Assembly (NCBI GenBank): GCA_030374765.1
Contig: JARGXX010000096.1
Location: 372,001 to 436,000 of the forward strand
Origin: Agarophyton chilense
Taxonomy: Eukaryota > Rhodophyta > Florideophyceae > Gracilariales > Gracilariaceae
Direction: 5' to 3'
Length of the DNA: 64,000 bases
The notes beneath the pieces were generated by a model that searched no databases, was not told the origin of the DNA, and saw only the letters and a program-made list of their open reading frames with translations. Shown here one piece after another: positions 12,415 through 54,509 of this stretch. The stretch's first letter is position 1. Every line of letters begins with the position of its first letter. The position numbers and the translations under genes are program-made.

Positions 12415-12423
12415 GATTGGCAT

Positions 12424-17924: not shown

Positions 17925-20344
17925 ATGGCTTCGAACAAACAAGCAGGGAGCTCCTCGGGATACCAAGTGGCTTATGAGCGTCCCGGGGACCACTAGGACC
18001 ATACCCTCGGGCAAAAACCGCGGGTAGTGCGTTGTGAAGGAGCGCTTATAACGGTTGAGCCTTGTAAGCCGCCGGGCCCTGAGATATCTTACAGGCGACA
18101 CGTAAACTGGTCGACCTCGGCTGGACTCATTTAGTTAACTATTTTAATTTAATAAGTGTAGTAGATTAGCATTAAAGTGTCAGGGAGATTCCAGCGCCCC
18201 GCCAGTACTATTTACTTGGGTCGAGTGACGTTTCTCCCTTATAGTAAGGCAGGCACCGATAGGATACTAAACAACCCCCTTGGGTATATTAGTTCCACCA
18301 TTTGGTCTTCAAACCATCGTTTCCGTAGCTCCAACCTGTAGGACTACGCAGTAAACGCCAGCCCATTGCACCAACTACTTTGGGAGCGCCGCCGTCAAGG
18401 ATTCGAACCTTAGGACCCGCTCTACCACGCTACCACCGGTCGAGACCCGTACGTGGACCCACCCGTCATTGCGTTACATGCGTCATGCCATTCTTCCGTC
18501 CTCTGTGAAAGAATACCAAAGGTCCTGTCATATGTATCTCGACGCCCGGAGGTCCGCTAAGATACCCGATTTCCGGAGGGGCAATAAGAACGCACGCAGC
18601 GTCTCGTGGTATAACCGATGGTTGCATTGTCCTGTGGATCTGCGTTCGGCGACGCGCTGTCGCACACTCATCCAAGCGGATATGCCGTACGTCTGCCACG
18701 AGGAGGAAGCCGAGTACCAGTTGAGGGTGAACAAACTCCCTTCGGACCTATACCCGGACTTCATCTCGCCTCATGTGAGATTTCCTCCGGCGGGTGACAA
18801 CCTCTTGGCGCTCATATGCTTCCGTCCGCCGTATAACCGCCTGTGTTGGATGTCCAACAGGTTCTATTGGAACAAGATGCACGAGCCTGGTGGTCGTTCA
18901 CGTCAATCCCTGGAGTTCTTCTTCTGCTGGCACCAGGTGGAGTTTCACGACATGAGCGCAGACAAGCGCCCTCCATTATATCTCTCGCTGCCCCGTGTGA
19001 AAGAGAACCAATGGGCCATGTCTCGGCGTGTCTCGCCGCCCCATTTGGTCCGCACGCCGTCCGTGGTGGCGTATCGTTCGTCCCAACTCATGTGCGACGA
19101 CAATGACCGAAGGTCCTGGTTGTCCTGGCAGGTACTCTTAGTTGAGTTCCGCGTGATTTCCCTTATGGCCTTCCTGGATACCGCGAAGTACGACGTCCGT
19201 TGTAATGTCCGTTCGGATGATTGGAGGATATTACACGACGAGAACACACCCGGTCCTCGAGGTCGTCTAGTCCCGCTCCCGGACGTCATGATCCGTTTCC
19301 TAAGGAACCTGGGCATCCATAATATCGTTCGTGGGACCCAGTTCGCAGTCGAGGAGGTCGAGTCTCTTTCGGATCATGTCCTACACGTGGAATGGTGCAA
19401 GACTCCCTGGATCCTTTGGTATGACCACGATACCGACTCGTTCACGCCGATTCCGCTATATCCACACGATCGGGATGAGACTTGTGCCTATTCCGCTAAG
19501 CTCTTGAGGAATCAACTATCGGACATTCCGAGGCTTCATTTGCCTGACTATTACACAAAGGCCGTTGGTTTCGATTCCCTGTGCTTTGAGCCTGACTCGG
19601 AAGCCACGCCTTTGGTTCCTGCTGGTATGTCCGATGGAGAATCCTTCGGTGAAGATCTAATCGTCCTACCCGTGGAGGGCGTCAATCCTCCGGTCGAGTC
19701 CGCTGTTGGGTTGATGACCTCTTCCCCTCCTCCAGCTCCTCCGAGCGCTGCTCCTCAGGATGAACTCTCATATGAGCCGCCCGTCTCCCAGGTAGATATC
19801 CCTCCTGGCGAGGTTACTGTCGAAGCCGAAAGTCCTGTATGTGATGCGCTGGCTCAGACGTCCACTGGGGGGCGTCGATATCGCTCCATCCTCTCCGTTG
19901 CCACATTTTCCCGCTTCGGTCACGGCTGTGGCTTCTCATCTCCGTCATGTCTGCTCCAGCGTCGGTATTACTGCCTCGATGGACATTGCGACAGTCCTGA
20001 GGGAAGCTTGCTCCTGGGCGCGTCGCTCGGCGCGCTACGCCGCGGTTGTCCAACAGGATCAGGATCTGAAGACCACTATGGTCAGTATACTGCAGCATAA
20101 TGCCCAAGTGATGTCCCAGAGGGTTACAGCCGACTTGAATGCCCGGTTTGGTCTAAATTTGAGTGAGCGGGAGGCTTCCGATGGTGACAATAGTTCCTCA
20201 GGTGAATCTCCGCCGAAGAAGCGTGCTCGGCTCGCTGGGACCGGTCCCAGCGGTCCAGTTGGCTCCTCGGGTGACCTTAGTCCCTGTTTCGCTCCTGTAG
20301 GTTCCAATGAGGACGACGGAGTTACTCTTGCGCCGCCTCCGTGA
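17925..20344 (+). pseudogene. antisense ORF (aORF) protein of gypsy copy 1, interrupted by a solo LTR
   Basis: Protein of unknown family carried by the gypsy element on the strand opposite gag-pol. The ATG is at 17925 in a strong context (caccATGGCTTCG) and the protein starts MASNKQAGSS. It has an internal stop, then solo LTR B (18033-18478), then resumes at RHAILPSSVKEYQRSCHMY. A long run rich in Trp, Tyr and Arg follows to about 19600. Next come a Pro/Ala linker (SSPPPAPPSAAP) and a C-terminal helical segment (MDIATVLREACSWARRSARY, QDQDLKTTMVSILQHNAQV). A nuclear-localisation-like SPPKKRARL lies before the stop at 20342-20344. An extra G in the run near 19868 shifts the frame. The amino-acid sequence is shared with copies 2 and 3 and distantly with 40788-41687. 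Confidence 0.75.
18033..18478 (+). repeat. solo LTR B of the gypsy family, 5-bp target duplication TGCGT
   Basis: 446 bp, TGTGAAGGAG...GCGTTACA on the plus strand. It is preceded by TGCGT (18028-18032) and followed by TGCGT (the A of the LTR end, then tgcgtcatgcc at 18479). Removing it restores the antisense ORF sequence GTGCGTCATGCC, so this is a clean insertion followed by LTR-LTR recombination. Confidence 0.9.
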
Positions 20345-20519
20345 GTCCTGTTGGTGTTACGAGCGCTTCCGCGAACCATGAGGTCTGGGTGAGGGATGTT
20401 CTACCTCTGTTTGTTGTCAAATAAAGTATTGCTTGTGCATTCCAAATGTTGCTCCTGTATTTCGGGACTGCGCCCGATCCTTGAGAGTGTCTCGGGTCTT
20501 CCTCAGTTGTCGCCTGAGG

Positions 20520-21695
20520 ACTGATTTTGTTCCCTGATGCGGGAGCTACGGCGAACCTCGTGTGGGGAGACAGTTTGGGAGGCGTTTTGGTATTATTCAG
20601 GGCGATGGTTTCCCTCTCCTGAAGGCTGCGCTCCTTGCAGCCGATTTTGCGCCACTAGCGGGCGACAAAATTAGCCAGAATGGTTTGAGGCTCTTTCCAA
20701 TTGTCTTTCTCAGGGGGGTAGCCGAACCAACAGACGCGATAGCCCATAGTTCCGTCTTCTCCCCGACTGGCGGAGATGACGCGCTCAATCACGTATTCCG
20801 GTTGGTGTTCACTCTCCTTCTGGAGAATGTGGTCCAGCGGAGCGAATCCATCGGATTCAGTTGGAAGAGATGGGTCATCGTCATTGGCATTGACAATCGA
20901 GTCCATGGGGATAGTTGGGTTTGCGGGAGCTGCCTTAGGAGGTGTGGGGACTTGAGCGTCGACCTGAGGTCGTAGTGATTTCGTCGGGCCTGGGGCTGGA
21001 ACTTTGGTGATTCGGGAGAGCTGGGTGTTCGTGTCACCCGATCAGTGGATACGGTGTCCTGTAGGCCGTCAATTAGTAACGTAATGGTGTGTTGATTGGC
21101 CTTAAGGACTTTTTATGGTCCCGTAGAGTGGGATAAGAGCTTCAGAGTAGTGATCTCGAGTTCATCACTGTCCTTCGGTAGCTGGTCTAGGTAAATCAAT
21201 TCTCCTTTCCCAAAGGTAGGTGTGTTCCAGACGGTTTTGTCGAAATTGCCATTTTAGCGCCCTTTGTCTTTGGTCTCTACAGCTCTAGCCGATTGGGGAA
21301 TGCGGTCGATGCGTCGGCGCGAGTAGCGTTTCGCCTGGGTAGGAGTCATTTCTTCGGTTATGTACTGGGTTACGATAGACTCCTAGAGGTTAACATCTAT
21401 CGGCGGGGCCGATCTCGTTAGCGTTAAATCGAAAGTTTTTGTCCCCGTGGAAGCGTGCACTTGCCTGTTGTAGGCATAAACCAGTGGCTCAACGTAGTCA
21501 TCCCAGTCCAATTGGTGCTCGGATACGTATTGTGGCAATCGGTTCAGAATGGTGCGGTTGAAGCTTTCGGCTTGGTTATTGGTTAGCAGGTGGTACGAAT
21601 TGGTGGTCACATGTTTGATGCCTAAGGTAGCACAAAAGTGTGAAAAGAATTTGGATACATACTGGCTGCCATCATCCGTCTGTGTTTTCGGAAAG
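20520..21695 (-). pseudogene. gypsy pol remnant: integrase end and chromodomain (copy 1)
   Basis: On the minus strand, the integrase end reads GSQYVSKFFSHFCATLGIKH and then NNQAESFNRTILNRLPQYV, with the catalytic Glu of the QAES motif intact. WDDYVEPLVYAYNRQVH follows. Further on, PEYVIERVISASRGEDG...YRVCWFGYPPEKDNWKEPQTI (20655-20860) is a chromodomain like those that end chromovirus integrases. Several stops separate the pieces. The end of this frame converges on the end of the antisense ORF. Confidence 0.75.
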
Positions 21696-25214: not shown

Positions 25215-25355
25215 GGGCCCCGGTTAAGAAAGCTCATGCTTAGGGGCAGCGCCCGGAGGAGCTGGAGGACGGGAAGCGGTAGGCAACACCACAGCGGACT
25301 CGACCGGGGGATGAACGCCCTCCACAGGTAGTACGAAGGGATCTTCACCGAAGGA

Positions 25356-26612
25356 TTATCTATCGCACATACCAGCAGGAGCCAACGGCGTGGTTTCCAC
25401 GTCAGGCTCGAAGCACAGCGGATCGAATCCAATGGCTTTCGGATAGTATTCGGGCACATGAAGCCTCGGGATGTCCAATGATTGATTCCTCAAAGGCTTG
25501 GCTGGATAGGCACGAGCGTCGTCCTGACCCTGCGGATGTAGTGGAATCGGCGTGAATGAGTGGGTAGCGTGGTCATACCAAAGGAACCCGGGAGTCTTGC
25601 CCCACTCCACCTGTAGGACATGATCCAAAAGAGACTTGGTCTCCTGGACGTCGAACTGGGTCCCACGGACGATATTCCGGATGCCCAGGTTCCTTAAGAA
25701 GCGGATCATGATGTCCGGGAGCCGGATTAGGTGAACTCGAGGACCGGGTATATTCTCATCGTACCACAATCTCCAATCATCCGAACGGACATTACCACGG
25801 GTTCCGTACTTCGCGGTATCCAGGAAGGCCATAAGAGACATCACGCCGAGCTCAACTAAGAGTACCTGCCAGGATAGCCACAACCTTCGGTCATTGTCAT
25901 CGCCCATGAGTTGGGACGAGTGGTACGCCACCACAGACGGCGTGGGAACCAAAAGAAGCGGCGAGACACGCCAATACATGGCCCATTGGTTCTCATCCTC
26001 GTGGGTAAGCGAAATATATAACGGAAGACGTTTCTCTGCGCTCATGTCGTGGAACTCCACCTGGTGCCCACAAAAGAAGAACCCCAGGGATAAACGCAAA
26101 CAACCCTCGGGCTCATGCGTCTCGTTCCAATAGACCCTATTGGACATCCAAAACAGCCGGTCAAACGGCGGCCGGAAGCACAAAAGAGCCAAGAGGTGGT
26201 GACCCGCGGGAGGAAGTCGCACATGAGGCAAGATTAAGTCCGTGTATAGGTCCGAAAAGAGTTTTTTCACCCTGAACTGGTATTGGACTTCCTCCTCGGA
26301 GCCGACATATGGCATGTCCGCTTGGATGAGGGTACTACATCGCGTCGCCAAACGCGGATCTACAGGACATTGCAGCCATCGGTTATACCACGAGACGCTG
26401 CGCGCGTTTTTGCTGCCCCTCTGGAATTCGGATATCTTGGCTAACCTTCGGGCGTCGAGGTACATATGACAAAACCGCTGATATTCTTCCACAGAGGACG
26501 GAAGAATGGCATGACGCACTGCCCGCGGATTCCGTCCGATGGTATAATCATAGGGACGTTCGTAAGCCACTTGGTATCCCCAGGAGCTCCCCGCTTGGTT
26601 GTTCGAAGCCAT
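25356..26612 (-). CDS. antisense ORF (aORF) protein of gypsy copy 2, longest uninterrupted version
   Basis: 418 residues from the ATG at 26612 (context caccATGGCTTCG, identical in all three copies) to a stop at 25356. It starts MASNNQAGSSWGYQVAYERP and contains the YQRFCHMYLDARRLAKI, SWYNRWLQCPVD, PHVRLPPAGHHLLALLCFRP, FHDMSAEKRLPLYISL, PTPSVVAYHSSQLMGDDNDR, WLSWQVLLVELGVMSLMAFL, MIRFLRNLGIRNIVRGTQFD and VEWGKTPGFLWYDH segments. It ends early relative to copies 1 and 3, because homologous but interrupted sequence continues to about 25215. It has no CCHC knuckle, no protease or polymerase motif, no signal peptide and no obvious membrane span. I cannot assign a family. The protein could be an accessory structural or regulatory factor transcribed from the antisense side of the 3' LTR. 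Confidence 0.7.
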   Translation of the reverse strand: MASNNQAGSSWGYQVAYERPYDYTIGRNPRAVRHAILPSSVEEYQRFCHMYLDARRLAKISEFQRGSKNARSVSWYNRWLQCPVDPRLATRCSTLIQADMPYVGSEEEVQYQFRVKKLFSDLYTDLILPHVRLPPAGHHLLALLCFRPPFDRLFWMSNRVYWNETHEPEGCLRLSLGFFFCGHQVEFHDMSAEKRLPLYISLTHEDENQWAMYWRVSPLLLVPTPSVVAYHSSQLMGDDNDRRLWLSWQVLLVELGVMSLMAFLDTAKYGTRGNVRSDDWRLWYDENIPGPRVHLIRLPDIMIRFLRNLGIRNIVRGTQFDVQETKSLLDHVLQVEWGKTPGFLWYDHATHSFTPIPLHPQGQDDARAYPAKPLRNQSLDIPRLHVPEYYPKAIGFDPLCFEPDVETTPLAPAGMCDR

Positions 26613-27148
26613 GGTGCTGCTGCCCACAGGCTGCTCCGCCGGGAAGTGAATAGGACGACAGCTGGAAGCGATAAGGTCCAGAGGGAGAACGGCATATCCG
26701 ACGGGCCTGAAAGGCGAGTTCGGCATCGCGTGCGACCAATGAAAAAGTACAACGATGGGAAGGCGAATGACGGAATTGACCCGAGCAAACTGACAGGCGT
26801 GATCCACGGTGGACAAAGCGCAGGGGGTCGCTAAAGGAAGAACGGAGACTGAGGAAGGCTCCAATGACCGTCAGAGAAGATGAAGCCAATGGACCGTCTG
26901 GGCACCGCGACGCGAGGAATGCGCCGGCGATGCACCTATGGCCAGTGCTCAAGGCACGTGGGAGTTTCACTCACTAGGCAAATTAATTGCCCTTCGGCGC
27001 CAATGGTCCGCTCACGCTTCCCCGCATCCCCGCAGGCGATGACCACGCGACGTCCCGTCGCGCCGAACGGTACCAGGAGCAACGAAGTGCTCGCGTCCCC
27101 TGGGTCAATCATGAGGCCATCTGGACTTCGCTGTGACGCCCGACTCCT

Positions 27149-27161
27149 AAAGGGGGAGATA
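27149..27161 (+). promoter_or_regulatory. polypurine tract beside LTR C
   Basis: AAAGGGGGAGATA directly before the LTR start TGTGAAGG. It corresponds to the tracts beside LTRs A and F. Confidence 0.65.
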
Positions 27162-27607
27162 TGTGAAGGAGCGATGACAACGGTTGAGCTCTGTAAGCCG
27201 CCGGGCCCTGAGGTACCTTACAGATGACACGTGGACGGGTCGACGTCAGATGGGCTAATGTAGATTATTTATCTATTTTAATTAGTGTAATAGATTATCA
27301 TTACAGTGCCAGAGAGATCCCAATGCCTCGCCAATACTATTTACTTGGCTCCAGTGACGCTTCTCCCTTACAGTAAGGTAGGCACCGTTAGGATTCTAAA
27401 TAACCCTCTTTGGTATATTAGTTCCACCCTTTGGTCTTCAAGTCATCGTTTCCGTAGCTCCAACCTGTAGGACTACGCATTAAACGCCAGCCCACTGCAC
27501 CAAGTACTCTGGGAGTGCCGCCGTCAAGGATTCGAACCTTAGGACCCGCTCTACCCCGCTACCCCAGGTTGAGACCAGGGTGTTGACCCACCAGTCTTTG
27601 CGTTACA
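27162..27607 (+). repeat. gypsy-family LTR C (3' LTR of copy 2)
   Basis: 446 bp, TGTGAAGGAG...GCGTTACA. It carries the antisense tRNA-like module at about 27515-27570. It shares with LTR A the variant AACCTGGGG (minus strand) where the other LTRs have GACCGGTGG, so A and C form a subgroup. Confidence 0.87.
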
Positions 27608-27755
27608 CCTATCCTTGTTCCCATGCGCATTATTCAGTTTTTGGGTTCTGAAATCGATTGTCTTTAAAGCGGTTTCTGGAAACACAATATTTTTTGTACA
27701 AAGAAAACATAAGCGATTCTGTTAACAACGTTTCTTTTCATCTTCCTTTAGATAA
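27608..27755 (-). pseudogene. short copia reverse transcriptase remnant at the outer side of LTR C
   Basis: The minus strand carries CGCATGGGAACAAGGATAGG next to the LTR, coding HGNKDR, exactly the 20 bases that flank LTR A. Further out it diverges but still shows an AAACTGAA match, consistent with a decayed relative of the same RT gene. Confidence 0.45.
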
Positions 27756-28158
27756 TGAAACGCAATGACTGGTGAGTCAGCGTACTGGTCTCAACCTCAG
27801 GTTGCGTGGTAGAGCGGGTCCTAAGGTTCGTATCCTTGACGGCAGCACTCCAAGAGTACTTGGTGCAATGGGCTGGCGTTTACTGCGTAGTTCTACAGGT
27901 CGGAGTTACGGAAACGATGGCTTGAAGACCAATTGGTGGAACTAATGTACCAAAGGAGGTAGTTTACTATCCTGACGGTGCCTACCTGACTCTAAGGGAG
28001 AAGCGTCACTCCAGCCAAGTAAATAGTACTGGCGAGGCGCTGGGTTCTCCCTGGCACTGTAATGCTAATCTATTACACTAATTGTGATATTTTACAGTAT
28101 TAGATACATCAGGGCCCGGCGGCTTACAGGGCTCAACCATTATCGTTGCTCCTTCACA
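27756..28158 (-). repeat. solo LTR D of the gypsy family, 5-bp target duplication GATAA
   Basis: 403 bp; the plus strand reads TGAAACGCAATG...GCTCCTTCACA. GATAA precedes it (27751-27755) and follows it (28159-28163). The segment just before the CAGGGCCCGGCGG block is shortened relative to other LTRs. It contains the tRNA-like module in plus-strand orientation near 27800-27850. Confidence 0.9.
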
Positions 28159-28163
28159 GATAA

Positions 28164-30186: not shown

Positions 30187-30188
30187 AA

Positions 30189-31660: not shown

Positions 31661-31890
31661 TGGTCCGTTGCGGTCAAGAAAAGACCAGGACGTGCTGTGT
31701 GGTGTTTATTTTTTGGTGTTAGATCGTCGATACCAAGGGAGCTTAACCGTCTACGGGCTTATCTACCTACGTGCTGCGGCAACTGGTGACGGCGGCGGAG
31801 TGTTCTTGCTAAAAATCTTCGGTGATACGAACCGTACGAAACTTGATTAGCTCATGGTGCGTGTGGCTACGCTCCCCTCTTTCAGAGTGC
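31661..31890 (-). repeat. left LTR of second gypsy element (3' LTR)
   Basis: Matches 37580-37810 over about 220 bp, including GTCCGTTGCGGTCAAG, TATCTACCTACG and CGAACCGTACGAAACTTG. The inner end is approximate because the two copies diverge near 31880. Confidence 0.75.
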
Positions 31891-32154
31891 ATGTGCAAGT
31901 CGAGCTTTGTTCTCTAACAGCCGAGAAGTGTAATTGCGCAGAAGCAGGCCTTGGAACATTGGTGGTACGTCTTTGCAGACGCGTTTCAGCGGCTCCAGCG
32001 TGTCGTTCGAATTCGGTAGTCCTTTCCAGCGAACTAAAACTTGTATTGCGCCGTCTTCGATTTCTTCTAGCCACATCAGTCGAACGACGGGCATGCCTGG
32101 TTCGGACGATAACACGTGCCACAGCGACAATATGATTCGGGTGTCTGTGGCCAA
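31882..32154 (-). pseudogene. chromodomain at the pol C-terminus, second gypsy lineage
   Basis: The minus strand encodes MPVVRLMWLEEIEDGAIQVL followed by VRWKGLPNSNDTLEPLKRV. This matches the chromodomain fold signature (start of strand 1, VRWKG, then the position of the conserved WEP, here LEP). Chromodomains at this place direct integration toward marked chromatin in related elements. Confidence 0.75.
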
Positions 32155-33100
32155 GTCACGGAAGCACTTAAGGCGTTTGCCATGGATGTCTTCCAGAAAT
32201 CCGTTTCGGAGATCTTTGACTTGATAAACGTATTCTCTTTGTGCCTTGATAGTTCGTTTTGTGCCACTCCAGCGTAGACAGAGTTTCTGTAGTATCCTGC
32301 ACTATCGGAATGCTAATGGAAGATTTTTTTAGCTATGTATAATGATACTCATAAGTGAGTGCAACGGCTAGGATGAAGTTATGAAGCGGAACCCCGCAGA
32401 TAGTCCGTGAGGTGGTTTGTTACACGTGGGATCTCGGTCTGCAACGGCGCATACCGTTCGACTGTTTATAGGGAAATACCGGATTGGCAGTGGTGCATGT
32501 AGAGGGTAGCCCCGTGGCATTCAGGCCTATCTTTCTTAGGCGGACGCCCATTTAAAGCTAGTTTTCCAGTACTGTAGAGGGATTCTTCGTCTAGCCAAAA
32601 TTATATCTAGATTTTATTATGTGCGGCGCTCACCCCTATGCACAGTACTTAAGGCACACAGGAGAGCGCCGACTCTAAAGTAAAGGAGACAACAAACGGG
32701 TTCACAACTGACTTGTTCCTTATTCAGGATTCCTGAACCGGAGATCCGGACAAGCTACAACAAGTAATTGTCCGTTCCACACAATACCAACCACCCTCAT
32801 TGGCGAGTGGGGCCTCAGAGCCCCCATTCTAGCTCGCTTGTGTTGTGCTCTACCCCATCTTCCCCTTAGCCGCAAGCACCCATTCGGCATTCCCGAACAC
32901 TGTCGCAGGTGTCCGCTCTCTCCGTCGAGCGGATAATACAGTTTCTATTCGGCAAAAAAACTTCTCACTGGCGACGAGGACGTAATTTCTTTCCGTAGAG
33001 TTCGGTAGCTCGCTAGTTGATGCGGCACGTTGGAAGCATTCCCGATTTTTCCGTCCGGATTCTTGAACGAGTGGTATAATTAGGCATCGCGTTTCTTGAG

Positions 33101-40101: not shown

Positions 40102-42268
40102 AGAATTCGAGCACCTCCGATGACACAATGCACGACCATCATGGTTTGCGTCGGACGCAAGAGCCTACCGTCAAGGGGTACAAAGATCTTGGATCCGAGG
40201 AAATACTGTGTCAATATGTCTCTTCATCACTGTTGGGCACCATGTCTGGTAAAGGTACTCGCGGTTCGAACTGCAGCCGTGGTATCTTGAAGCCTCTGCC
40301 TCACTTCCGCTCTCGGGGTTGTGGTCGTGGCCAGTCCGTTACCGCTCCGGTTTCTGCTTCATCCTCCATCCCTGATGGGGCATTTAAATTACCTCTTGGG
40401 GCCGGGCATTTTGATCCGTACTCGTTAAACGCCCCGCTTACAACACTCAAACCCTTTGGTCTGTTCTAGGAGGAGCTCAATGCGCTGCACTTGGAGGCCA
40501 CCTCCTCTTCTGTCCCGATTAACACCGCTGGGTTGGGTTCGCAGTTTCGGCATCCACCCTTCCTGGTCATGCCTCATGGAATTGTTAGGACAGCCACCGT
40601 CTTTGCGCTGTGCCATTAGCTCCACCGGTGCGATCAAGGGAGAAGCGTTCCCGTCCAGGGAGATAGGCTTGCTTTCCATCTAAAGTGTGAGCAGCACTCA
40701 CCGTTTCGGTTTTTCATTTCTAACACCACTCCGAGGGACTTATCATATCTACGGTGAAACGACGATTTTTTCTACTTCTGTAACCTTGTGGGATTATTGC
40801 ACCGTATCTATCCATGGAAGAAGTGGCTGAAGCCTGACCCGGTAGTGGTGATATTCAACACAGCCTTCCGTACCATTCACTGGTTGGAGCGTGACCGTTG
40901 GGGCGAGGGCGCTACCACCGAGATCCGAGTCCGCTGTCGAAACAGTCCCGTACGTACCATACATGGTTTCCATCGCACTGAGTTCCTCTTTCAAACGACG
41001 GAGAATCGTTGCAAATGGTATGTGACCCGTCCCGAAGGATGGGTGGGCTACAATGTAGCTCATAGGTTGTGCGTTACGACTCCTCCCGTGTTGGCGTACA
41101 TCTGCAGTAATTGCCACCGATACGAGGAGAACTATCATACCACTTGGTTTGTGGCTCTCGCATATTGGGCCGTTCTTGTTGTCCTACTAGCTTTCAAAGC
41201 ATCCCGTGATAGTATCATATGGTACAACCGTTGCTCCGACCATCATTTCATCAATTATATTTTCTCAGCTGTGGGTCGTATCTTCCGGCTTCGCAGCTCT
41301 ACAGTAGATCTCCTTCACCAGATCGGTGTGGATGAGATTCTCTTCGGTACCAAATGCTCCTTCACCCAGCTGGAGACACACCTGGAGGTGTCGCTGTCGA
41401 ATTTATGGAAGGATGACCAATGTTGGGAGGTTTCGGAGTTCGAGAACCTAGCCATCTCCAGAGAAGTGAATCGCGTAGTACCAGAAGAAGAACTCTCTGG
41501 TGGATACCCTCACCCTTTTACCCATAAAGTGGAGACTACGGAAGGTATTACCTCCGTCTTAATAACCCCCGCTCCTGCTATTTCGGCTGGATTTTTTTGT
41601 ATCCGCATTCCCCGCTCGGTACGTGCTACATCTCCTGGGCCTGCGAAATCCGTCAGGGTGAATGCTACTACAGCTGGCGGATGTTAGCTGGTTACGGCTC
41701 CTGCAATTAGTAGTAAGCTTATGAGGATCCATTGCGTGTTTGTGTCTCGTCTCAATCGTCCCAATTTGCGCTTCCTCCAGGAAGCTATCGCGCTCCTGGA
41801 GCAGTTCATTCTTTGTCATACAGAGTATATTTCCGGTATCATCCATGGGTTCCCTTCCGTAATCGGTTTCAGAGCAGGATATACCAAGCGGTCAGGCATC
41901 ACGTGGCCGATCTCAGCACCGTTGTCGATCGAGCGGACACTTCGATCGATCCCCTCATGGGCACCACTGCTGGTTCCTTGTTGGATTCCGTCAGTAATTA
42001 CCCTGTTGCTAACGTACCGATGCCGATTCCTGGCTCTTTGCCTTTCTCTAATCCTACTTTCTCCTCGAGTACCTCTTCGGGTCTGCCGCGGTTTCCTCCA
42101 ACTCCTCAGGGTTCTGCTCCAAATTGGTCTAGTGCGGGTTCACAGTCCTTCACTGCGAAGCTCCCTGGTACTGGTTCCGGGCCTTCTAGAAGACCTCCTA
42201 CCAATCATGGTGCGAAACCTTCCTGGAGGGGCCTTTGCAGGTTTCCGACATTGTGCAGCTTGCCATAA
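40102..42268 (+). pseudogene. diverged relative of the gypsy antisense ORF protein
   Basis: Plus-strand pieces with frame changes; the largest, 40788-41687, is 299 codons. It aligns with the antisense ORF protein: FRTIHWLERDRW with FDRLFWMSNRVYW; PPVLAYICSNC with PSVVAYHSSQL; AVLVVLLAFKASRD with GVMSLMAFLDTAK; VDLLHQIGVDEILFGTKCSF with IRFLRNLGIRNIVRGTQFDV. The nucleotide sequences are too different to be a recent copy. A Pro/Ser-rich C-terminal part follows (41940-42268), as in the other family. The stretch 40102-40787 supplies a candidate N-terminus (Gly/Arg/Ser-rich) in other frames. No LTRs or pol were identified around it. Confidence 0.6.
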
Positions 42269-45026: not shown

Positions 45027-45473
45027 TGTGAAAGAGCAAACGATAACGGTTGATCCCTGTAAGCCGCCGGGCCCTGAGGGATGTTACAAACGCCACGTGG
45101 GCTAGCCGACCTCAGCTGGGCTAGTGTAGATTATTAATTTGTTTTAATTAGTGTAATATATTAGCATTACAGTGTCGGAGAGATCCAAGCGCCTCGCCAT
45201 TACTATTTACTTGGCTCGAGTGACGCTTCTCCCTTAGAGTACGGTAAGCACCGTTCGGATACTAAATTCCCCCCTTTGGTACATTAGTTCCACCAATTGG
45301 TCTTCAAGCCATCGGTTCCGTAGCTCCAACTTGTAGGAATACGCAGCAAACGCCAGCCTATTGCACCAAGTACTCTAGGAGTGCCGCCGTCAAGGATTCA
45401 AACCTTAGGACCCGCTCTACCACGCTACCACCGGTCGAGACCAGTACGCTAACCCAACAGTCATTGCGATACA
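45027..45473 (+). repeat. gypsy-family LTR E (5' LTR of copy 3)
   Basis: 447 bp, TGTGAAAGAG...GCGATACA. Contains the antisense tRNA-like module at about 45380-45440. The sequence that follows (ttcggttgtcccgactta) does not start with TGG, so no ordinary tRNA primer-binding site is visible. Confidence 0.88.
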
Positions 45474-45537
45474 TTCGGTTGTCCCGACTTAGAAAATACC
45501 TTTGGAATAATTGAACGGACCACTGGAACGAAGAATT

Positions 45538-47463
45538 ATGGGGATTCTAAGCTTTGGTTTAATTCCTCAACGGACCAGAAATACAGTAGCAACCGCCATT
45601 ACAGACGCAGGAAACACACCCAACCGACCAGACCATAGGACTCCTATGGCAGGAACACCTGCCACTGCAACGTCGAAGATGTCGCCCGAATTTCAGGTTG
45701 ATAATGATAGTGACTACAGGAGCACGAAAAGCCAGCCGCAAGGAGTACTGACTCCCCTGGACGACCCTGAACGGATTCACCGAGAACTCACGGCAGCAGC
45801 GCGTTTACGAGAACGCCTCACTAGGGCCACCTCTATGCCAGGAACACCACAAGGAGAACCCCGTAAAATCGAAGGAATTAGAGAGAACACTCCCGCCGGG
45901 CTTGTACACCTTCTCTGGCGTTGTCTTCGTGAGCTCTGCTCAGCCCACGTAGATTCTATTGTAGACATGCGACTCGCTACGGCGATCACTGACCATACCG
46001 ATCACCTCGTTACGCGAATCGCCCCCAAGGTCATGGAGTCGAGTAATTCTTAGACTCCCTCCTTCAGGTCGTTCAAGGAGCAGTCACCAGCCAGTCAGGC
46101 AATACGGTCCTTAGGACCACTCTACAAATCAACCATCCGGCTTCCATATGGCAACCCCCTACCGAATCCCGAGGAGTGCTGGTTTTTGGCGCCCCTTGCC
46201 AGGAACAGGTTCAAGAAAATCCAATTGAAGGACGATCTAGGAGCAGAAGAGAGGCTCCGCGTCTAGATGAGAGACAGACTGCCCTTCCCAAAGGATAATA
46301 TGAGGTACAAGTACCTCGGAGTTCCATCAGATCTGATAGAGAGGTCGATCCGTTAGGTCCTATTCCGCTGGAAAGAAAAGAAGTAACCGCAGGAGAAAAA
46401 GAACAGGAGAAGCAAAAGAAAAGATCGTTCGGACACGAGTGATATCGATTCGGTCTCGTCCGAAACGACCGACTCGGAAGTGTATAAGGCTGCCGTTCGA
46501 GGCCTCAAACCACTGATAACCACAAACCAACTTTTCCTTAAGGTTTTAGACTATCGGAACTACCGGCTGGTAGATATGTCCCCGAAATATTCTGGTTCCG
46601 TTGCTCGAAGCGTCGCAAAATGGGCCAAACGGATGCAACTAAACATTACGGACAGGTTCTCGGGTTTCGATCCCATTGCTGTCCTTAGGTTTCTCAGTTT
46701 GTTCCGTCCGGCCTGTGATCAGAACGGTGTCCACGAGGGCGCAGCTCTGTACCTTTTCCAATTCTTCTTTACAGGACAGGCGCGTGGTCGAGTGCTTTCG
46801 AAGATATCTGGCACAACTGACCTCGTCGATGCTAAAGACCGTGAGCTCCTCAGGTCATACCCTCAGGTTATTCATTACCTCTTGGAAACTTGCGCCAAGG
46901 ATGACGTTATAATGGTTGTCCACCAGGTAGTAATCTCCTTCAGGATGAGCTCCAACATGAATGAATCGGCTTTCGCCAACGACCTATGGAAGAAGGCTAA
47001 CCGTTGTGGAAACGTGTTCTCCGAAGGATGGCTTAAACGTAACTTCATCACAGGATTACTCCCTCCCATTTGGACATATGTACTTAATTACCACATGGAA
47101 AACCCACAGCACTCCTTCCAAAGGCTCGTTGCTTATGCCGAGGGTTATGGAAAAACCTACAGGACTTCCAGGCGGAGTGCTGACATATCCAGAGGATACG
47201 AAACTCCATTGCGTGAACGCAATCAAGTCCATTTGGTTAGCTGCACGGAATCGGACATGGATTCATCACTCCATGATGCCGACTCGGGAGATGTCCTCAC
47301 GATCAATTTCAGTGCTTCCCCGTCCATGCCCCCATCATATACCTCCCAGGGAACTACAGCGACCATTGGACCACCCACGCCCAAGTATTCTTCCCTTCCG
47401 CCCCGCAAGGACGTTTTTGTTCGCTCCCCAAGGGCCTTCTTTCTCTGCCTGTCACTTACTTAA
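45538..47463 (+). pseudogene. gag remnant of gypsy copy 3
   Basis: The N-terminal part starts MGILSFGLIPQRTRN at 45538 and stops at 46053. The frame then degenerates until a capsid-like stretch (46480-47463): VARSVAKWAKRMQLNITDRF, GAALYLFQFFFTGQARG, FANDLWKKANRCGNVF, LKRNFITGLLPPIWTYV and HSFQRLVAYAEGYG. This is the helical gag pattern of Ty3/gypsy elements. A Pro/Ser-rich tail follows. No intact CCHC knuckle was found, although a short Cys-rich stretch occurs near 47620-47680. Confidence 0.7.
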
Positions 47464-47783
47464 CCTTGTGACTGTATGAAATATTTGCCTAAGGACGCAC
47501 GAAAACCCCTCCTATCCCTAAGAGAAGAGAAGTACCAGGTGCGGAGATCCGAAGGAATGTAGAACAGGGCACAGCCACGAACCATGGGGAACCCTGGAAG
47601 CTCACGCGATGCCACGCCTCTGTACATTCTGATCAAAGTCCCACAGTTCCACTCCATTGTAGATCCTGCGGACGGCCCCGTGGAAGAACCCTATTCTTAG
47701 GAAGAAACGGAAACCCCATCGGAAAACTCCTAGGAGGACGACTCGAGGCAAATCCTCCCTCTTTAAGCCCCTGCCTCAACCAA

Positions 47784-50700
47784 TTGGACAGTCATGAGCC
47801 AAAGAGCTCCTCACCTCTCAACACAAACCACCCACAATGGACCATTCAGGAAGAACCACAATTGGAACACAGAATCGACCGCGTCTGTATCCTCAGGAAA
47901 GAGAACTATAAAGTTCGAGTTACCGTAGGACTTCGTTCCAACAACTCTCGAGTGACCACAGATGTATTGGACACTGGCGCTGGTCCCAACTTGGTCCATC
48001 CTAAGCTGCTCCCACTGGGTTGGCAAGATTTCGATCAGGCAAGGAAGACCCCAAGGATTACCGATGTGTCTGGTAGACCAATGGACATTAAAGAGATAGT
48101 ACCACTTTACCTCCAGGCAGGACAATCCTAAGTCCGCACGTGGTTCCTTGTATCTCCTAACTTAGGCGCTAAAGCAATCCTATGGACCTTTTTTATCGAC
48201 AGATACATTAAGGCTATTTATCCAGGCCTTAGGAAAGTCGCGTTTTACCGCGCACATTCCATCTCCATAACTGGTTCAATCGCAGGGCCAGAAGCTAACC
48301 GCAAACGGGCGGTTGTTTCCGAAAACACGAAGTCCAATATGGTTCGCGTGTCAAAGGCCATAACGATACCGCCGATGACCCAAATCGCTGTATCGGTCCA
48401 TTCTCAGTCCTCAGGTCTCGTTTCGATTCAGAACCACCCGAAAACGGTTCTGAAGCACCTTACCTAGATGGCTAATGGAGTATTGGACATCCACCCAAAC
48501 AGGTCCTTCTTGGTCACAATCAGCAACTTCCGAGATAAACCCGTACGGTTACCTAATGGTACATTGATTGGTATCCCTCTACCCACGCCCGTGGCCATTA
48601 CGGAGGCCTAAATGGATAATCTTGCGACGCCAACCCCCGACGAGGACTTCAACTCTTGGGAAAAAGCAGTTGCAATCGGCGCAGAATTCGAATCCTATAG
48701 GCCCCAGGGACTTAATCTTCTCACGGAATATCAGGCGAATTGGTCAGGTAGATTGGGTAAAATCAGAGCCATTACACACTGCACTAACCTTCAGAATGAT
48801 GCTAGACCACAGATCCAGCACCCATACAGTACCGGCCTTAAAGGTAGGGAAATTGTCGCCGACCAGATAGACAAGATGCGCAAAGCTCAAATCATAAAGC
48901 CGGCGCCTCTAAACCAATCCGAATGGGCAAGTCCCCTTGTCTTCGTGGCGAAGAAAGACGGCTCCGTCGGGTTCTGTGTGGACTACAAGAAGCTGAACGC
49001 AGTAACCAAGAGGGTCTCATACCCGAGTCCCCTCATGGACGACTGTCTGGAATCATTAGGCGAAGCTGTCGTATTTACCACACTGGACGCTAACTCCGAT
49101 TACTGGCAAATCGCTTCGGCCGAAGATGCAAGAGCGCTGACAACCTTTACAACCCATGAAAATCTGTTCAGATTTACTCGAATGCCCTTTGGTTTGTCAA
49201 CAGGTAATGAAAATTATACTGCCCAGAGTGAAATGGAAGTTCGCCCTGGCCTATTTGGATGACGTTATAATATTCTCACGGACCGTAAAAGAACACCTTT
49301 GCCACGTGAAGAAGGTGCTAACAATCCTACAGGACTCTGGAGTAACACTGAAACTCCGCAAATGCGCCTTCTTCCAGGCCTCATTGAACTATCTCGGTCA
49401 CGTCGTCCTCCCAGGAAAGCCAAAGGTGGCCACACGGACCACAAATGCGATTCGTCAGGCTAAACCTCCTAGAATGCACACGGAACCACGATCCTTCGTG
49501 GGCTTGTGCAATTGTTATCGACGGTTTGTCCAAGGGTTTACTAAAATATCGGCCCCTCTCAACGCGATGCTGAAGAAGAGAACACCTTCGGAGTTCGAAG
49601 CCCTTACTGACGACCACTACGAGGCATTTCAGACCCTCAAGGACAAATTGCTGAAACCACCTATATTTGCTTTACCAAAAAACCAATAGGCCCTTTGTCC
49701 TGGATACTGGCGCCTCTGATGTCCAAGTGGCATATGCACTTCTACAGGAACAGGAGTCATCGAAGGACTATCGACCAATAAGATACTGGAGCAGAACGCT
49801 CACCAGTGCGGAGCGAAACTACAGTACTACTGAAAAGAAATGTCTAGCCAGCGTATGGTACGTATTGAGACTCCGTCCATACCTCGAGGTAACTAGGTTT
49901 ACAATTACGACAGACCACGATTCACTCCGCTGGTTACTCAATATGACCGATGTATCAAGTCGCCTCGCTCAGTGGCGCCTCAGGCTGTCCGAATATGACA
50001 ACGAGATAGCCTATTCTCCGGGCATCAAGCACCAGGCAGCAGATGCCCTGTCATGGATCATAACTGACGGAACTGATGACCCTCCATTGGACGACCTAAT
50101 TCCTACCCCCTTTACAGACGATGAAGCTCAGGACTATACGGAAACGGATGTCCTTATGGGTAAGGTGCAATCGGAGGATCCTGAAGTGAAGGAGAACGAA
50201 GTATACCTATTGAACTGGGAGACAATACCGGCCAATTCGACACCACTTCAGGTTACCGCGATAGCCCCGGAGGAGAAAGTGCTCCTCCCTATAACTGTTG
50301 AGGAACTACTACAGGCGCGGGTCGAATACGAATACTGCAAGGAAACAGCCCAATTGGTAAGAACCCCTGGATGCCTATTTGACTGCGACCGATTTGGACT
50401 ACTATGTCACCGCTCACCGCCGCATGGCGCACCCCAACGGGTAGTACCAACTTCGATAAAGGCGCGATTCCTATACCTCGCCCATTTTCCTCGCTTGACT
50501 GGTCACTCTGGATGCCAATGAATGTACCAGACCCTAAGGAAGTTCTTCTACTGGCCACTAATGGCTCAGGACCTGTGGAAAACCGCACGGAACTGTACTT
50601 CGTGCGCACAAATCCAAGGGTCTCGCGCCAACCTTGAGGACAAATTGAAGCTCTTTCCCACTGCAGGTCTGATGGAATTTGTCGCAATGGATTTACTTGG

Positions 50701-51810
50701 GCCTCTGCCTAAGTCGCCTCATGGGAAATGGTTTGTTTTGGTTATTACCGATAGGTTTACCAAACACAACCAAACCCTACCCCTAGGGAAGACAAAGGCC
50801 ACGGATGTCGCCACAGACTTCTTGTCCCACTGGGTATATCCATATGGTATGCAACTTTACCTCGTTACGGATAACCGCAGCCAGTTTGTATCCAAATTCT
50901 TCGTACAAGTTTGTGCTACCTAAGGTATAAAACATGTAGCCACCATGTTGTACCACCCGCAAACCATTGGACAAGCCAAACGCTTCCACCGCACCCTTCT
51001 GGACCTTGGAACACTACGTATCGGAGCATCAATTGGACTGGGACGGCTACGTCGAGCCACTGGTTTATGCCTACAACACGCAGATGCACTCTTCCACGGG
51101 GACCACGCCTTTCGACTTAAAGCTAACGAGAGCGTTACCGCCGATAGCTGTGTACCTTTAGGAGTCTATCATACCCCAGGACATAAACGAAGGGATGAGT
51201 CATACCCAGGCAAGGCCCTACTCGCGCCGACGAATCGACCGCATTACCCAATCGGCCAGAGCTGTACTAACCAATGTCCAACGGCGCTACAAGGCCAATT
51301 TCGATAAGGCTGTTTTTAACACACCGACCTTTGGGAATGGAGAATTTGTTTACCTGGACCGGTCACAGAAGGACAGTAGGACCTCGATGACACTACGCGA
51401 AAGCTCTTACCCCGCTCTACGGGACCATTCAAAGTCTTTAAGGTCAATCAAAACCCCATTACGATCCTAATTGACTGGACCACACTCTCCTGCCGGAGAA
51501 TGAATACCAACCGGAGTATGTGATCGAGCGCATTATCTCCGCCAGTCGGGGAGAAGGGGGAACGATGCTGTACCGCGTCCGTTGGTTCGGCTACACACCT
51601 GACGAAGACCCTTGGCATGAGTTTCAAACTATTCCGGCTAATTTTATCGCCCGCTATTGGCGCAGAATCGGCCGCACGGAGCGCAGCCTTCAGGAGGGGG
51701 CAACCTTTGGTCCGAATAATCCCAAAACGCCTCCCAAACCGCCTCCCGACCCGACGGTTCGCCGTAGCACAACGGTTCGTCATAGCTCCCACATAAGAGA
51801 ACAATTTTAG
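47784..51810 (+). pseudogene. pol remnant of gypsy copy 3: protease, RT, RNase H, integrase, chromodomain
   Basis: Protease: VLDTGAGPNLVHP at about 47970. Reverse transcriptase: EWASPLVFVAKKDGSVGFCV, VVFTTLDANSDYWQI, FRFTRMPFGLS, a frameshift near 49200, then LAYLDDVIIFS with the catalytic YxDD, and SFVGLCNCYRRFVQGF. RNase H: LTSAERNYSTTEKKCLASVW, TDHDSLRWLL and the final ADALS, with the first Asp in VLDTGAS. Integrase: HFPRLTGHSG...CTSC zinc finger interrupted by TGA at 50519-50521, AMDLLGPLPKS, LVTDNRSQF, then IGQAKRFHRT, where the catalytic Glu is Lys. Chromodomain: PEYVIERIISASRGEGG with YRVRWFGYTPDEDPWHEFQT at 51500-51665. The gene is broken by several stops and frame changes. Confidence 0.85.
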
Positions 51811-51983
51811 TTCTTCGACGACTCCTGAGGAAGACCTGAAACGCTTTCATTATTGGACGACGTCCCGGGGCACGCACGTTTGAGATACAAGAACGACCTT
51901 GGGAAAGCAAAAGCATTAATTTATTTGTCTAACTAGCAGAGTTATAACAGCCCTCACCATGACCTCAAGGTTCGCCGAAGCGC

Positions 51984-53960
51984 TCAGAACACCAACAGGA
52001 CTCCCTGGGGTTGCGCAGGAGTAACTCCGTCGTCCTCATTTGAACCTGTAGGAGCGGAACCGGAACCAGGGTCACCCAAGGAGCCAACTGGACCACCAGG
52101 ACCGGCCCCAGCGAGCCGAGCACATTTCTTCGGCGGAGATTCTCCTAAGGAACTATTGTCACCATTGGAAGCCTCCCGGTCACTCAAATTTATACCATAC
52201 CGGGCATCCAAGTCGAAAGTGACCCTCCGGGAAATCACTTGGGCATTTTGCTGCAAAATACTGACCATGGCGGTCTTCTGGTCCTGACCCTGTTAGACAA
52301 CCGTGGCGTAGCGCGCCAAGCGACGCACACAGGAGCAAGCTTCCCTCAGGACTGTCGCAATTTCCATCGAGGCCGTAGTACCGACGGTAAGGCACACATG
52401 ACAGTGATCCGAGGCCGCAGCCGTGACCGAAGCGGCAAAATGTGGCAACGGAGAGGACAGAGCGATGTTGACGACCCCAGTGGACGTTTAAGCCAGCGCA
52501 TCACCTACAAATCTTCCGGCCTCGACAGTAACCTCGCCAGAAGGTATGTCCACCTAGGCGATGCGCAGCTCATAAGAAAGCTCATTCTGGGGAGCAGCGC
52601 CCGGAGAAGCTGGAGGAGGGGAAGCGATCAGCAACACCACAGCGGACTCGACCGAAGCATTAACTTCCTCCACGGGTAGGCCGTAGGGATCTTTACCGAA
52701 GGATTCTCCACCGGACATACAAGCAGGAACCAACAGCGTGGCTTCTACATCATGCTCGAAGCACAAGGGATCGAATACGTTGTCCTTTTGAGAATAGTCG
52801 GGCACATGACGCCTCGGTAGTTCCGATGGTTGATTCCTCAAAGGGTTGGCGGTATAGGCACGAGCGTCGTCCTGACCCTGCAGATGTAGCGGAGTCGGCG
52901 TGAATGATTCGGTATCGTGGTCATACCAAAGGAACGCGGGAGTCTTGCCCCAATCCAGCTGTTGGACATGATCCAAAAGTTCTGCGGTCTCCTCGACGTC
53001 GAACTTGGTCCCATATACAATATTCTAAATGCAAAGGTTCCTTAGGAAGCGAATCATGGTGTCCGGGAGCGGGATTAGGCGAACTCGAGGACCAGGTATA
53101 TTCTCATCGTATAACACCCTCCAATGCTTCGAACGGACATCACCACGGGTTCCGTACTTCGCGGTATCCATGAAGGCCATAAGCGACATCACGCCGAACT
53201 CATCGAAGAGTACCTGCCAGGACAGCCATGACCTTCGGTCGTTGTCATCGCCCATGAGTTGGGACGAATGGTACGCCACCACAGACGGCGTGGGAACCAA
53301 AAGAAGCGGCGAGACACGCCAATACATGGCCCATTAGTTTTCATCCTCGTGGGGAAGGGAAAGATATAGCGGAAGACGTTTGTCTGCGCTCATGTCGTGG
53401 AACTCCACCTGGTGCCCACTACAGAAGAACCCCAGGGATTAACGCAAACGAACATCGGGCTCGTGCATCTCGTTCCGATAGATTCGGTTGGACATCCAAA
53501 GCAGGCGGTCATACGGCGGCCCGAAGCACAGAAGAGCCAAGAAGTTGTGACCCGCGGGAGGAAGGCGCACATGAGGCGAGATGAAGTCCGTGTATAGGTC
53601 CGAAAGGAGTTTGTTCACCCTGAAATGGTATTCGGCTTCCACCTCGCAGCGGACCTATGGCATGTCCGCTTGGATGAGGGTGCGACATCACGTCGCCGAA
53701 CGCAGATCCACAGGGCAATGCAACCATCGGTTACACCACAAGACGCCGCGCGCGTTCTTGCTGCCCCTCCGGAAATCTGGTATCTTGGCAAACATTCGGG
53801 CGTCGAGATACATATGACAAAACCGCTGATACTCTTGCACAGAGGACGGAAGAATGGCATGACGCACTGCCCGCGGATTCCGTCCGGTGGTATAATCATA
53901 GGGACGTTCGTAAGCCACTTGGTATCGCGAGGAGCTCCCCGCTTGGTTGTTCGAAGCCAT
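51984..53960 (-). pseudogene. antisense ORF (aORF) protein of gypsy copy 3, degenerate
   Basis: Starts at the ATG at 53960 (caccATGGCTTCG), MASNNQAGSSSRYQVAYERP, and follows the protein of copies 1 and 2 throughout. It is interrupted by several stops and frame changes (for example near 53640, 53440, 53335, 53020 and 52490). The C-terminal helical part and the SPPKKCARLAG segment, equivalent to SPPKKRARL of copy 1, are readable to the stop at 51984. It is transcribed, if at all, toward the end of pol from the side of the 3' LTR. Family unknown. Confidence 0.72.
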
Positions 53961-54496
53961 GGTGCCGCTGCCCACAGGCTGCTACGCCGGGAGTGGATAG
54001 GACGACCGCCGGAGGCGATGAGGGCCAGAGGGGGAACGGCATATCCGACGGGCCTGAAAGGCGAGGTCGGCATCGAGTGCGACCAATGAAAAAAGTACAT
54101 CGATGGGAAGGCGAGTGACGGAATTGACCCGAGCAGACTGACAGGCGTGAACCACGGTGGGCAAAGCGCGGAGGGTCGCTAAAAACAGAACGACGACTGA
54201 GGAAGGCTCCAATGACCGTCAGAGAAGAAGAAGCCAATGGACCGTCTGGGAACCGCGACGCGAGGAACGCGCCGGTGATGCACCTATGGACAGCGCTCAA
54301 GGCACGTGGGAGTTTCACTCACTAGGCAAGTTAATTGCTCTTTGGCGCCAATGGTCAGCTCACGCTTCCCCGCATCCCCGCAGGCGATGACGACGCGACG
54401 TCCCGTCGCGCCGAACGGTACCGGGAGCAACGAAGTGCTCGCGTCCCCTTGGTCAATCATGAGGCCACCTAGACTTCGTTGTGACGGCCGAATCCT

Positions 54497-54509
54497 AAGG
54501 AGTGAGATA
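54497..54509 (+). promoter_or_regulatory. polypurine tract beside LTR F
   Basis: AAGGAGTGAGATA immediately before the 3' LTR, one or two substitutions from the tracts beside LTRs A and C. Confidence 0.6.

What the first reader, a model, noticed from the sequence alone, without database searches (positions are those of the whole stretch)
17925..54509. A gypsy chromodomain family carries a long conserved ORF antisense to gag-pol
Seen directly: three copies (17925-20344 +, 26612-25356 -, 53960-51984 -) encode the same ~600-residue protein from an ATG in an identical context. It always lies between the end of pol and the 3' LTR, on the opposite strand, converging on the chromodomain. Known precedent: some plant gypsy elements (Grande, RIRE2) carry antisense extra ORFs, but I recognise no family for this protein. 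Inference: the antisense side of the 3' LTR acts as its promoter, and the protein with its KKRAR basic patch could be a nuclear accessory factor.
Basis: partly seen in the sequence, partly recalled or inferred. Interest (0 to 1): 0.78.

Follow-up and report, generated by a model that had tools for sequence, protein, structure and literature searches.

The report
Antisense accessory gene in algal retrotransposons
Jumping genes in a red seaweed carry, on the strand opposite to their usual genes, an extra protein gene that evolution kept intact and that distantly related element families share, so it probably does a real but still unknown job for them.

Summary
The genome is Agarophyton chilense or a near-identical red alga. 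All three window copies carry the antisense ORF, but each is broken. Across 43 copies the ORF frame has 4.5 stops per copy, against 12–24.5 in the other five frames. Two copies are open end to end (655 and 644 aa). Variants shared by at least 10 copies are mostly synonymous (12 N, 65 S, omega 0.07), while singletons look neutral (1.27): purifying selection on the protein while elements were active.

New: the ORF is not private to this family. A second gypsy family has a homologue (hhalign E 1.8e-9) with open frames up to 876 aa, converging on its chromodomain in 42 of 42 pairs found. A third homologue lies in this window (40620–41962), with only a weak chromodomain trace. Yet 11 of 20 sampled family-1 relatives share one frameshifting deletion of the ORF, so it is dispensable in cis or supplied in trans. 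No Pfam or PDB match was found. Antisense ORFs in this place are known from plants and a fungus; this protein superfamily and setting look new.

The parts
45027..45473 (+). copy 3, 5' LTR (TG...CA)
   Evidence: self-comparison; LTR ends fixed by the solo LTR with 5-bp target duplication
46480..47463 (+). copy 3, gag-position ORF, no Pfam match
48612..49262 (+). copy 3, reverse transcriptase piece
   Evidence: PF00078 E 1.1e-7
49667..50521 (+). copy 3, RNase H piece
   Evidence: PF17917 E 1.3e-31
50522..51475 (+). copy 3, integrase region (broken)
   Evidence: tblastn with the family-3 integrase L070, 34-53% identity in three pieces
51517..51666 (+). copy 3, chromodomain
   Evidence: PF00385 E 1.4e-6 over its cut-off
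52002..53960 (-). copy 3, antisense ORF (about 652 codons; 8 internal stops; usual stop codon at 52002-52004 lost, frame runs on to 51984)
53963..54509 (.). spacer between antisense ATG and 3' LTR; purine-rich stretch next to the LTR (read by eye)
   Evidence: conservation profile
54510..54934 (+). copy 3, 3' LTR (83% identical to the 5' LTR, 344 of 414 aligned bases, its last 13 bases left out)
16853..17298 (-). copy 1, 3' LTR
17925..18032 (+). copy 1, antisense ORF, first 36 codons
18033..18478 (+). solo LTR of the same family inserted in copy 1 (target duplication TGCGT at 18028-18032 and 18479-18483)
18479..20357 (+). copy 1, rest of the antisense ORF (long open stretch 18469-20100, then frameshift)
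20545..20831 (-). copy 1, chromodomain region
   Evidence: tblastn 69%
21068..21679 (-). copy 1, integrase remnant
25225..26612 (-). copy 2, antisense ORF, truncated; open for 418 codons (26612-25356)
26615..27161 (.). copy 2, spacer (92% identical to copy 3)
27162..27607 (+). copy 2, 3' LTR
40620..41962 (+). family 2: homologous antisense-type ORF remnant (open stretch 40788-41684, 299 aa) of a different element
   Evidence: tblastn with family-3 protein L069, 32% over 421 aa, E 2.8e-51; 38% over 246 aa
42404..42553 (-). family 2: possible chromodomain remnant on the opposite strand (weak)
   Evidence: tblastn 29%, E 0.055; degraded frame seen

Best explanation
It is a genuine accessory gene of chromodomain Ty3/gypsy retrotransposons in a red alga, lying between pol and the 3' LTR and read on the opposite strand, converging on the chromodomain. 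It belongs to an old protein superfamily shared by at least two clearly different gypsy families of this genome and very probably a third. While the elements were active the protein was maintained by purifying selection over its whole length. Proposed mechanism: the gene is transcribed from its own promoter in the spacer or antisense 3' LTR and ends in the short gap before the chromodomain. Its protein acts in trans on the element family, most likely in the nucleus as a regulatory or anti-silencing factor or as a helper of nuclear entry and integration. That would let copies with the gene deleted amplify as parasites of intact ones. Shown here: coding constraint (family 1), the converging layout (families 1 and 3), homology across families, existence and abundance of a deletion derivative. 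Inferred: transcription, trans action, nuclear site, biochemical role. My estimates: selected protein-coding gene 0.95; trans-acting 0.6; nuclear regulatory or anti-silencing role 0.35.
For: Stops per copy 4.5 in the ORF frame versus 16.4, 24.2, 18.9, 24.5 and 12.0 in the other five frames, 43 copies. N/S of variants shared by >=10 copies 12/65, omega 0.07, stop variants 0; singletons 1072/324, omega 1.27; none of the four frames that do not share its wobble column shows this, and the one reverse frame that does (0.13) has 24.5 stops per copy. Fisher p 6e-28. Constraint in all six 110-residue blocks. On the same loci, variants shared by >=3 copies give omega 0.28 for the ORF versus 0.49 integrase and 0.52 RNase H (the integrase value is inflated by a frame change in the reference copy, so read it as 'no weaker'). 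Full open frames of 655 and 644 aa. Homology to family 3: hhalign E 1.8e-9, 28% over 247 columns, score 78.8 versus a maximum of 25.5 in 40 shuffles; BLASTP 24% over 383 aa, E 3e-19. Family 3 layout: 42 of 63 ORF hits have a listed chromodomain tail within 3 kb, 42 of 42 on the opposite strand, mostly 215-230 bp apart; integrase core PF00665 next to it in the one locus read. Deletion derivative 11 of 20. AATAAA 61 bases after the copy-3 stop kept in 13 of 23 copies, median hexamer 6 of 23.
Against: No transcript, proteomic or functional data. The protein has no domain match and both AlphaFold models failed (pLDDT 33 and 36), so the role is inferred from layout alone. A common deletion derivative shows the gene is not needed in cis. 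The basic patch is seen in family 1 only. AATAAA retention is above the median but below other hexamers (up to 20 of 23). In family 3, 21 of 63 ORF hits have no listed chromodomain tail and 90 of 150 tails no listed ORF (lists are capped, so this may be the caps or deletions). Family-3 selection rests on one pair (omega 0.61; other frames of the same pair 0.70 to 1.18), which is weak. Family 2's carrier is known only from a weak chromodomain trace and one listed pair 2.8 kb apart.
Confidence: 0.6

Rival explanations
1. The selected product is the antisense RNA (double-stranded RNA, copy-number control), and the open frame is incidental.
For: Antisense transcripts without coding capacity are known in other retroelements (review PMC7264820).
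Against: Constraint follows codons: shared variants are mostly synonymous and stops are absent from variants shared by >=10 copies; full-length frames persist; homologous protein across families at 24-28% identity.
Confidence: 0.04
2. A host gene fragment or another mobile element's gene was captured once and hitch-hikes without function.
For: Higher GC3 (0.60-0.61) than RT, RNase H and gag pieces (0.51-0.54); a deletion derivative without it is abundant.
Against: Strong constraint, no weaker than pol pieces on the same loci, and presence in families 1 and 3, whose integrases are mostly 37-48% identical.
Confidence: 0.06
3. The protein is a structural or cell-exit protein (gag- or env-like) rather than a nuclear regulator.
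For: Position between pol and 3' LTR is that of env-like genes; the role is unknown.
Against: Antisense orientation; no similarity to the gag ORF of copy 3 (hhalign score 17, at the level of shuffled sequences). Membrane segments were not examined with a predictor.
Confidence: 0.15
4. The protein is a copy-number suppressor of its own element, so that deletion copies escape and multiply.
For: A single shared deletion is common (11 of 20).
Against: By inference, a pure suppressor would be hard to maintain by selection on the element lineage over several families; deletion copies are mixed with full ones in a tree (short and weakly resolved).
Confidence: 0.12

Closest known systems
Antisense additional ORFs between pol and 3' LTR (aORF-3R) of plant gypsy elements: Grande gene23, RIRE2, Retand ORF4 (Transposase_28/TRP28), PvRetro13 (review PMC7264820, parts 1 and 2 of 3 of the text read; Retand study PMC11963269, abstract and discussion read)
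   Same: Same place, same opposite orientation, long ORF, recurrent in the family, nuclear role suspected.
   Different: No Pfam match to Transposase_28 or plant mobile domain; the elements here carry chromodomains while Retand is a non-chromovirus lineage; host is a red alga.
Boty of Botrytis cinerea (named in PMC7264820 as a non-plant element with such an ORF)
   Same: Antisense ORF between pol and 3' LTR outside plants.
   Different: Its protein was not compared here directly; no fungal homologue appeared in the protein searches.
Ogre elements with plant mobile domain (PF10536) ORFs (PMC6317226, one passage read)
   Same: Extra ORF with a lineage-specific domain.
   Different: PF10536 not found in the ORF; the whole-genome search for it gave nothing, but its controls rang nowhere, so it proves no absence.
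VANC anti-silencing proteins of VANDAL DNA transposons (PMC10398659 and PMC5735166, search listing with abstract starts only)
   Same: Analogy for a transposon-encoded accessory protein that helps related copies.
   Different: DNA transposons, no sequence comparison made; analogy only.

Membership tests
aORF-3R (antisense ORF between pol and 3' LTR) | ORF lies between end of pol and 3' LTR | tested here: met
   Family 1: 20 of 20 fetched copies follow the chromodomain, LTR in 19 of 20. Family 3: next to the chromodomain in 42 of 42 listed pairs; its 3' LTR was not examined
aORF-3R (antisense ORF between pol and 3' LTR) | antisense to gag-pol | tested here: met
   integrase and chromodomain on the opposite strand in L069/L070
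aORF-3R (antisense ORF between pol and 3' LTR) | conserved in most copies of the family | tested here: inconclusive
   19 of 20 integrase-selected relatives keep some of it, but 11 of 20 share an internal deletion
aORF-3R (antisense ORF between pol and 3' LTR) | transcribed from its own promoter | not testable with these tools
   no RNA data
Transposase_28 / TRP28 (PF04195) | profile match | tested here: not met
   no match at E up to 10 in L030 and L042 nor at E up to 5 in the 5 members of A4
Plant mobile domain (PF10536) | profile match | tested here: not met
Chromodomain Ty3/gypsy element (carrier) | RT, RNase H, integrase order with C-terminal chromodomain and LTRs | tested here: met
   Family 1. 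Family 3: integrase core and chromodomain only (the chromodomain match is below its Pfam cut-off). Family 2: weak chromodomain trace only
Chromovirus clade | RT/integrase phylogeny | not tested
   no tree of RT or integrase was made

The most novel reading that the evidence does not exclude
Red-algal chromodomain retrotransposons share an ancient, uncharacterised superfamily of antisense-encoded, trans-acting nuclear proteins (an element-encoded regulator or anti-silencing factor). It arose independently of the plant antisense ORF proteins, and it sustains both intact elements and a swarm of deletion derivatives that parasitise it.
Probability: 0.3. Interest if true: 0.78.

Novelty: new variant of a known kind. 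Interest (0 to 1): 0.62.

Why it matters
Antisense accessory genes of LTR retrotransposons have been discussed for flowering plants and one fungus, with unknown function and origin (PMC7264820). Here is an unrelated-looking protein in the same place in a red alga, under clear purifying selection, shared by families whose integrases are mostly 37-48% identical, with a natural knock-out (the common deletion) for comparison. That makes the question of what such genes do, and whether the arrangement evolved more than once, open to direct test.

Tried and rejected
Structure: two AlphaFold jobs with 13-sequence alignments gave pLDDT 33 and 36. No fold search was run, because matches to such models mean nothing. 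PDB and Pfam sequence searches found nothing credible (best PDB E 0.64). The hits of the 5.8-billion-protein search are all A. chilense (8, 11); the family-2 ORF found none, and the family-3 protein could not be searched there (cap reached). Viral-contig scans gave no relative and the phage collection none.

An idea that the recurrent deletion is a spliced intron was dropped: the junction shows no GT-AG on either strand and some microhomology, read by eye. The pattern search for the junction was not specific, because full-length copies match it too. Upstream extension of the ORF: no frame is free of stops (in the ATG's own frame 2 to 10 per copy over 20 copies), so the ATG is the likely start. 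Whole-genome searches for PF04195 and PF10536 are uninformative because their controls did not ring. The tree of the C-terminal 385 bp is too poorly resolved to say whether deletion copies form one clade. The first integrase comparison mixed frames; one search repeats it by piece, and its stop counts show that the integrase part still crosses a frame change in the reference copy.
Full report
WHAT IS THERE. The window lies in G000, a 79.8-Mb assembly of 135 contigs. A predicted Agarophyton chilense protein (P0002) matches it 100%, so it is that red alga or an almost identical relative. Copy 3 is a gypsy element at 45027-54934: 5' LTR, gag-position ORF without a Pfam match, RT, RNase H, integrase remnants, chromodomain, then a reading frame on the other strand (ATG 53960), a 547-bp spacer and the 3' LTR. 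Its two LTRs are 83% identical (344 of 414 bases), so it is old. Copy 1 is split by a solo LTR of its own family with a TGCGT target duplication. Copy 2 is a truncated 3' end. None of the three encodes the complete protein.

IS IT A GENE. One search scored 100 of 1081 candidate places for copy 2's 418-residue frame; all 100 matched, 4 without a stop in the matched part. I aligned 43 copies (3 from the window, 40 from 10-kb or 2.1-kb stretches chosen because they hold the ORF; some are truncated). In the ORF frame there are 4.5 stops per copy including the shared terminal one; the other five frames have 12.0 to 24.5. Two copies are open from ATG to stop, 655 and 644 aa; a third has a 598-codon open stretch. 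Polarising by the commonest codon, variants found in one copy look neutral (1072 N, 324 S, 53 stops; omega 1.27 against the mutation spectrum of the spacer). Variants in 2-3 copies give 0.83, in 4-9 copies 0.32, in 10 or more 0.07 (12 N, 65 S, no stop). Only the reverse frame sharing the same wobble column shows a like drop (0.13), and it has 24.5 stops per copy. The contrast is significant (Fisher p 6e-28), though copies are related and the p-value is not a phylogenetic test. All six 110-residue blocks show it (0.03 to 0.15 at 10 or more copies). On the loci for which pol pieces were held (17 pol rows, 18 ORF rows), variants shared by at least 3 copies give 0.28 for the ORF, 0.49 for integrase and 0.52 for RNase H (9 variants only). 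The integrase value crosses a frame change in the reference copy and is therefore too high; the fair reading is that the ORF is constrained no less than pol. So the protein was kept by selection while the elements moved, and each inserted copy has since decayed.

CIS SIGNALS. The start context is conserved (A at -3 in 20 of 20, ATG in 19 of 20). After the stop, an AATAAA in antisense orientation is kept in 13 of 23 copies (median hexamer 6 of 23), and a block about 36 bases further on (CTCAAACGTGCGTGCC) has hexamers kept in 16 to 20 of 23; two hexamers soon after the stop are kept as well as these (18 and 19 of 23). This fits an antisense poly(A) site but is not proof. No promoter evidence was obtained. 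The KKRAR patch (residues 611-615) is exact in 20 of 43 copies.

A DELETION DERIVATIVE. To avoid choosing copies by the ORF, I took the integrase hits (39 besides the window; 40 scored of 566 candidates). Of the first 24, four were already held for their ORF (L012, L019, L022, L024), and I read 800 bases downstream of the other 20. Six have an ORF tail that runs on past the point of deletion, 11 share one internal deletion of about 1456 bp, 1 has another deletion, 1 shows too little, 1 shows none. With the four, that is 11 shared deletions in 24. The deletion joins residue about 38 to about 525 out of frame, at the same place in the alignment of all 11. For the 15 hits further down, plus the four, coordinates alone say: 12 of 19 have an ORF hit in place, 2 have the spacing of the full form and 2 that of the deletion form, and 3 are unknown (my reading of the lists). 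Deletion and full copies are mixed in a weak tree of 57 sequences. A family-3 copy (L009) also seems to lack most of its ORF. The gene is therefore dispensable in cis; supply in trans is the simplest reading given the strong selection.

THE ORF FAMILY IS OLDER THAN THE ELEMENT FAMILY. An unassigned ORF in the same window, 40788-41684 (+), aligns collinearly with the family-1 profile but weakly (hhalign P 0.0036; score 30.1, best of 40 shuffles 28.1). Searching the genome with it gave 139 matches (131 scored of 371 candidates), among them a group at about 34-42% identity with much longer open frames. One of these, L069, has an open frame of 856 aa in the genome (710 in the stretch), followed about 208 bases on by a chromodomain reading frame on the other strand (PF00385 at E 0.0093, below its cut-off; 29% to copy 3's chromodomain over 56 residues, E 7e-7). 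That frame continues upstream into an integrase core (PF00665, E 1.3e-10; L070). L069 is homologous to family 1 (hhalign E 1.8e-9, 247 columns, 28% identity; 40 shuffles reach at most 25.5 against 78.8, the reversed sequence 14.6; BLASTP 24% over 383 aa, E 3e-19) and to the window's family-2 ORF (38% over 246 aa, E 5e-49; tblastn 40620-41840 at E 2.8e-51). Twenty-eight columns are invariant in five sequences of the three families. Family-1 and family-3 integrases are mostly 37-48% identical (single pieces 30-53%, first 25 lines). Of 63 scored family-3 ORF hits (of 1660 candidates), 42 have one of the 150 listed chromodomain tails (of 1886 candidates) within 3 kb, all 42 on the opposite strand and mostly 215-230 bp away; the other 21 have none listed. 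Of the 150 tails, 60 have a listed ORF on the expected side within 3.5 kb, all opposite; 90 have none listed. The lists are capped, so the misses may be caps, deletions or real absences. Five of the 63 have no internal stop (839-876 aa). The Pfam chromodomain search helped little: of 125 ORF places typed and 137 of its 150 rows, 7 pairs lie within about 12 kb, and only one is on the expected side within 3 kb, opposite strand, beside a family-2-like ORF (C99). Family 2's carrier is thus the least certain. Family-3 selection could be tried on one pair only: omega 0.61 for the ORF against 0.70, 0.89 and 1.18 in other frames, 0.37 for integrase from a different pair; this is weak.

HOW IT MIGHT WORK. 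Facts: coding constraint, antisense convergent layout, sharing across diverged families, abundant deletion derivatives. From these I infer a protein expressed from an antisense promoter and acting in trans. The nuclear regulator, anti-silencing or nuclear-entry role is by analogy with plant antisense ORF proteins (Grande gene23 is nuclear; Retand TRP28 is predicted to bind DNA: PMC7264820, PMC11963269). It has the weakest support.

KNOWN OR NEW. The arrangement is a known kind, called aORF-3R in PMC7264820 (parts 1 and 2 of 3 of the text read), found in plants and Boty of Botrytis. The plant domains named there and in PMC6317226 (one passage read) do not match. Searches of open-access papers listed nothing that I recognised, from titles and abstract starts, as such an ORF in a red alga; I did not open the algal papers listed, and the library lacks most subscription journals. 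Protein homologues were only A. chilense, with a search that needs shared 5-residue words. I therefore rate it a new variant of a known kind, with a protein superfamily that appears undescribed.

CHANGES ON CHECKING. 

Noticed in passing
window 18033-18478: Solo LTR of the same gypsy family inserted inside copy 1's antisense ORF with a perfect 5-bp target duplication (TGCGT); it fixes the LTR ends (TG...CA, 446 bp).
   Followed up: yes
L049-L068 (integrase neighbours): One shared, frameshifting deletion of about 1456 bp in the antisense ORF in 11 of 20 sampled relatives: an abundant deletion derivative.
   Followed up: partly
L014:7830-9899 and L014:4980-6130: One 10-kb stretch holds antisense-type ORFs of three families side by side (family 1 at 1894-3875, family 2 about 4980-6130, family 3 at 7830-9899).
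   Followed up: partly
window 9716-11182: ORF of 488 aa with a C-terminal Hint (hedgehog/intein-type) module (PF01079, E 1.2e-26) and an 18-bp tandem repeat at 10435-10557.
   Followed up: no
window 3971-4804 and 11542-12423: Host-like genes on the minus strand: complex I 49-kDa subunit (PF00346) and tRNA-His guanylyltransferase (PF04446/PF14413).
   Followed up: no
window 6218-7213: Open Tc1/mariner-type transposase ORF (DDE_3 and Tc3 HTH domains).
   Followed up: no
window 31661-37789: A second, different gypsy-like element in minus orientation: 212-bp direct repeats (77%) and an RT-like ORF at 34488-35318 (PF00078 below cut-off).
   Followed up: no
window 27754-28083: A partial inverted LTR next to copy 2's 3' LTR.
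   Followed up: no
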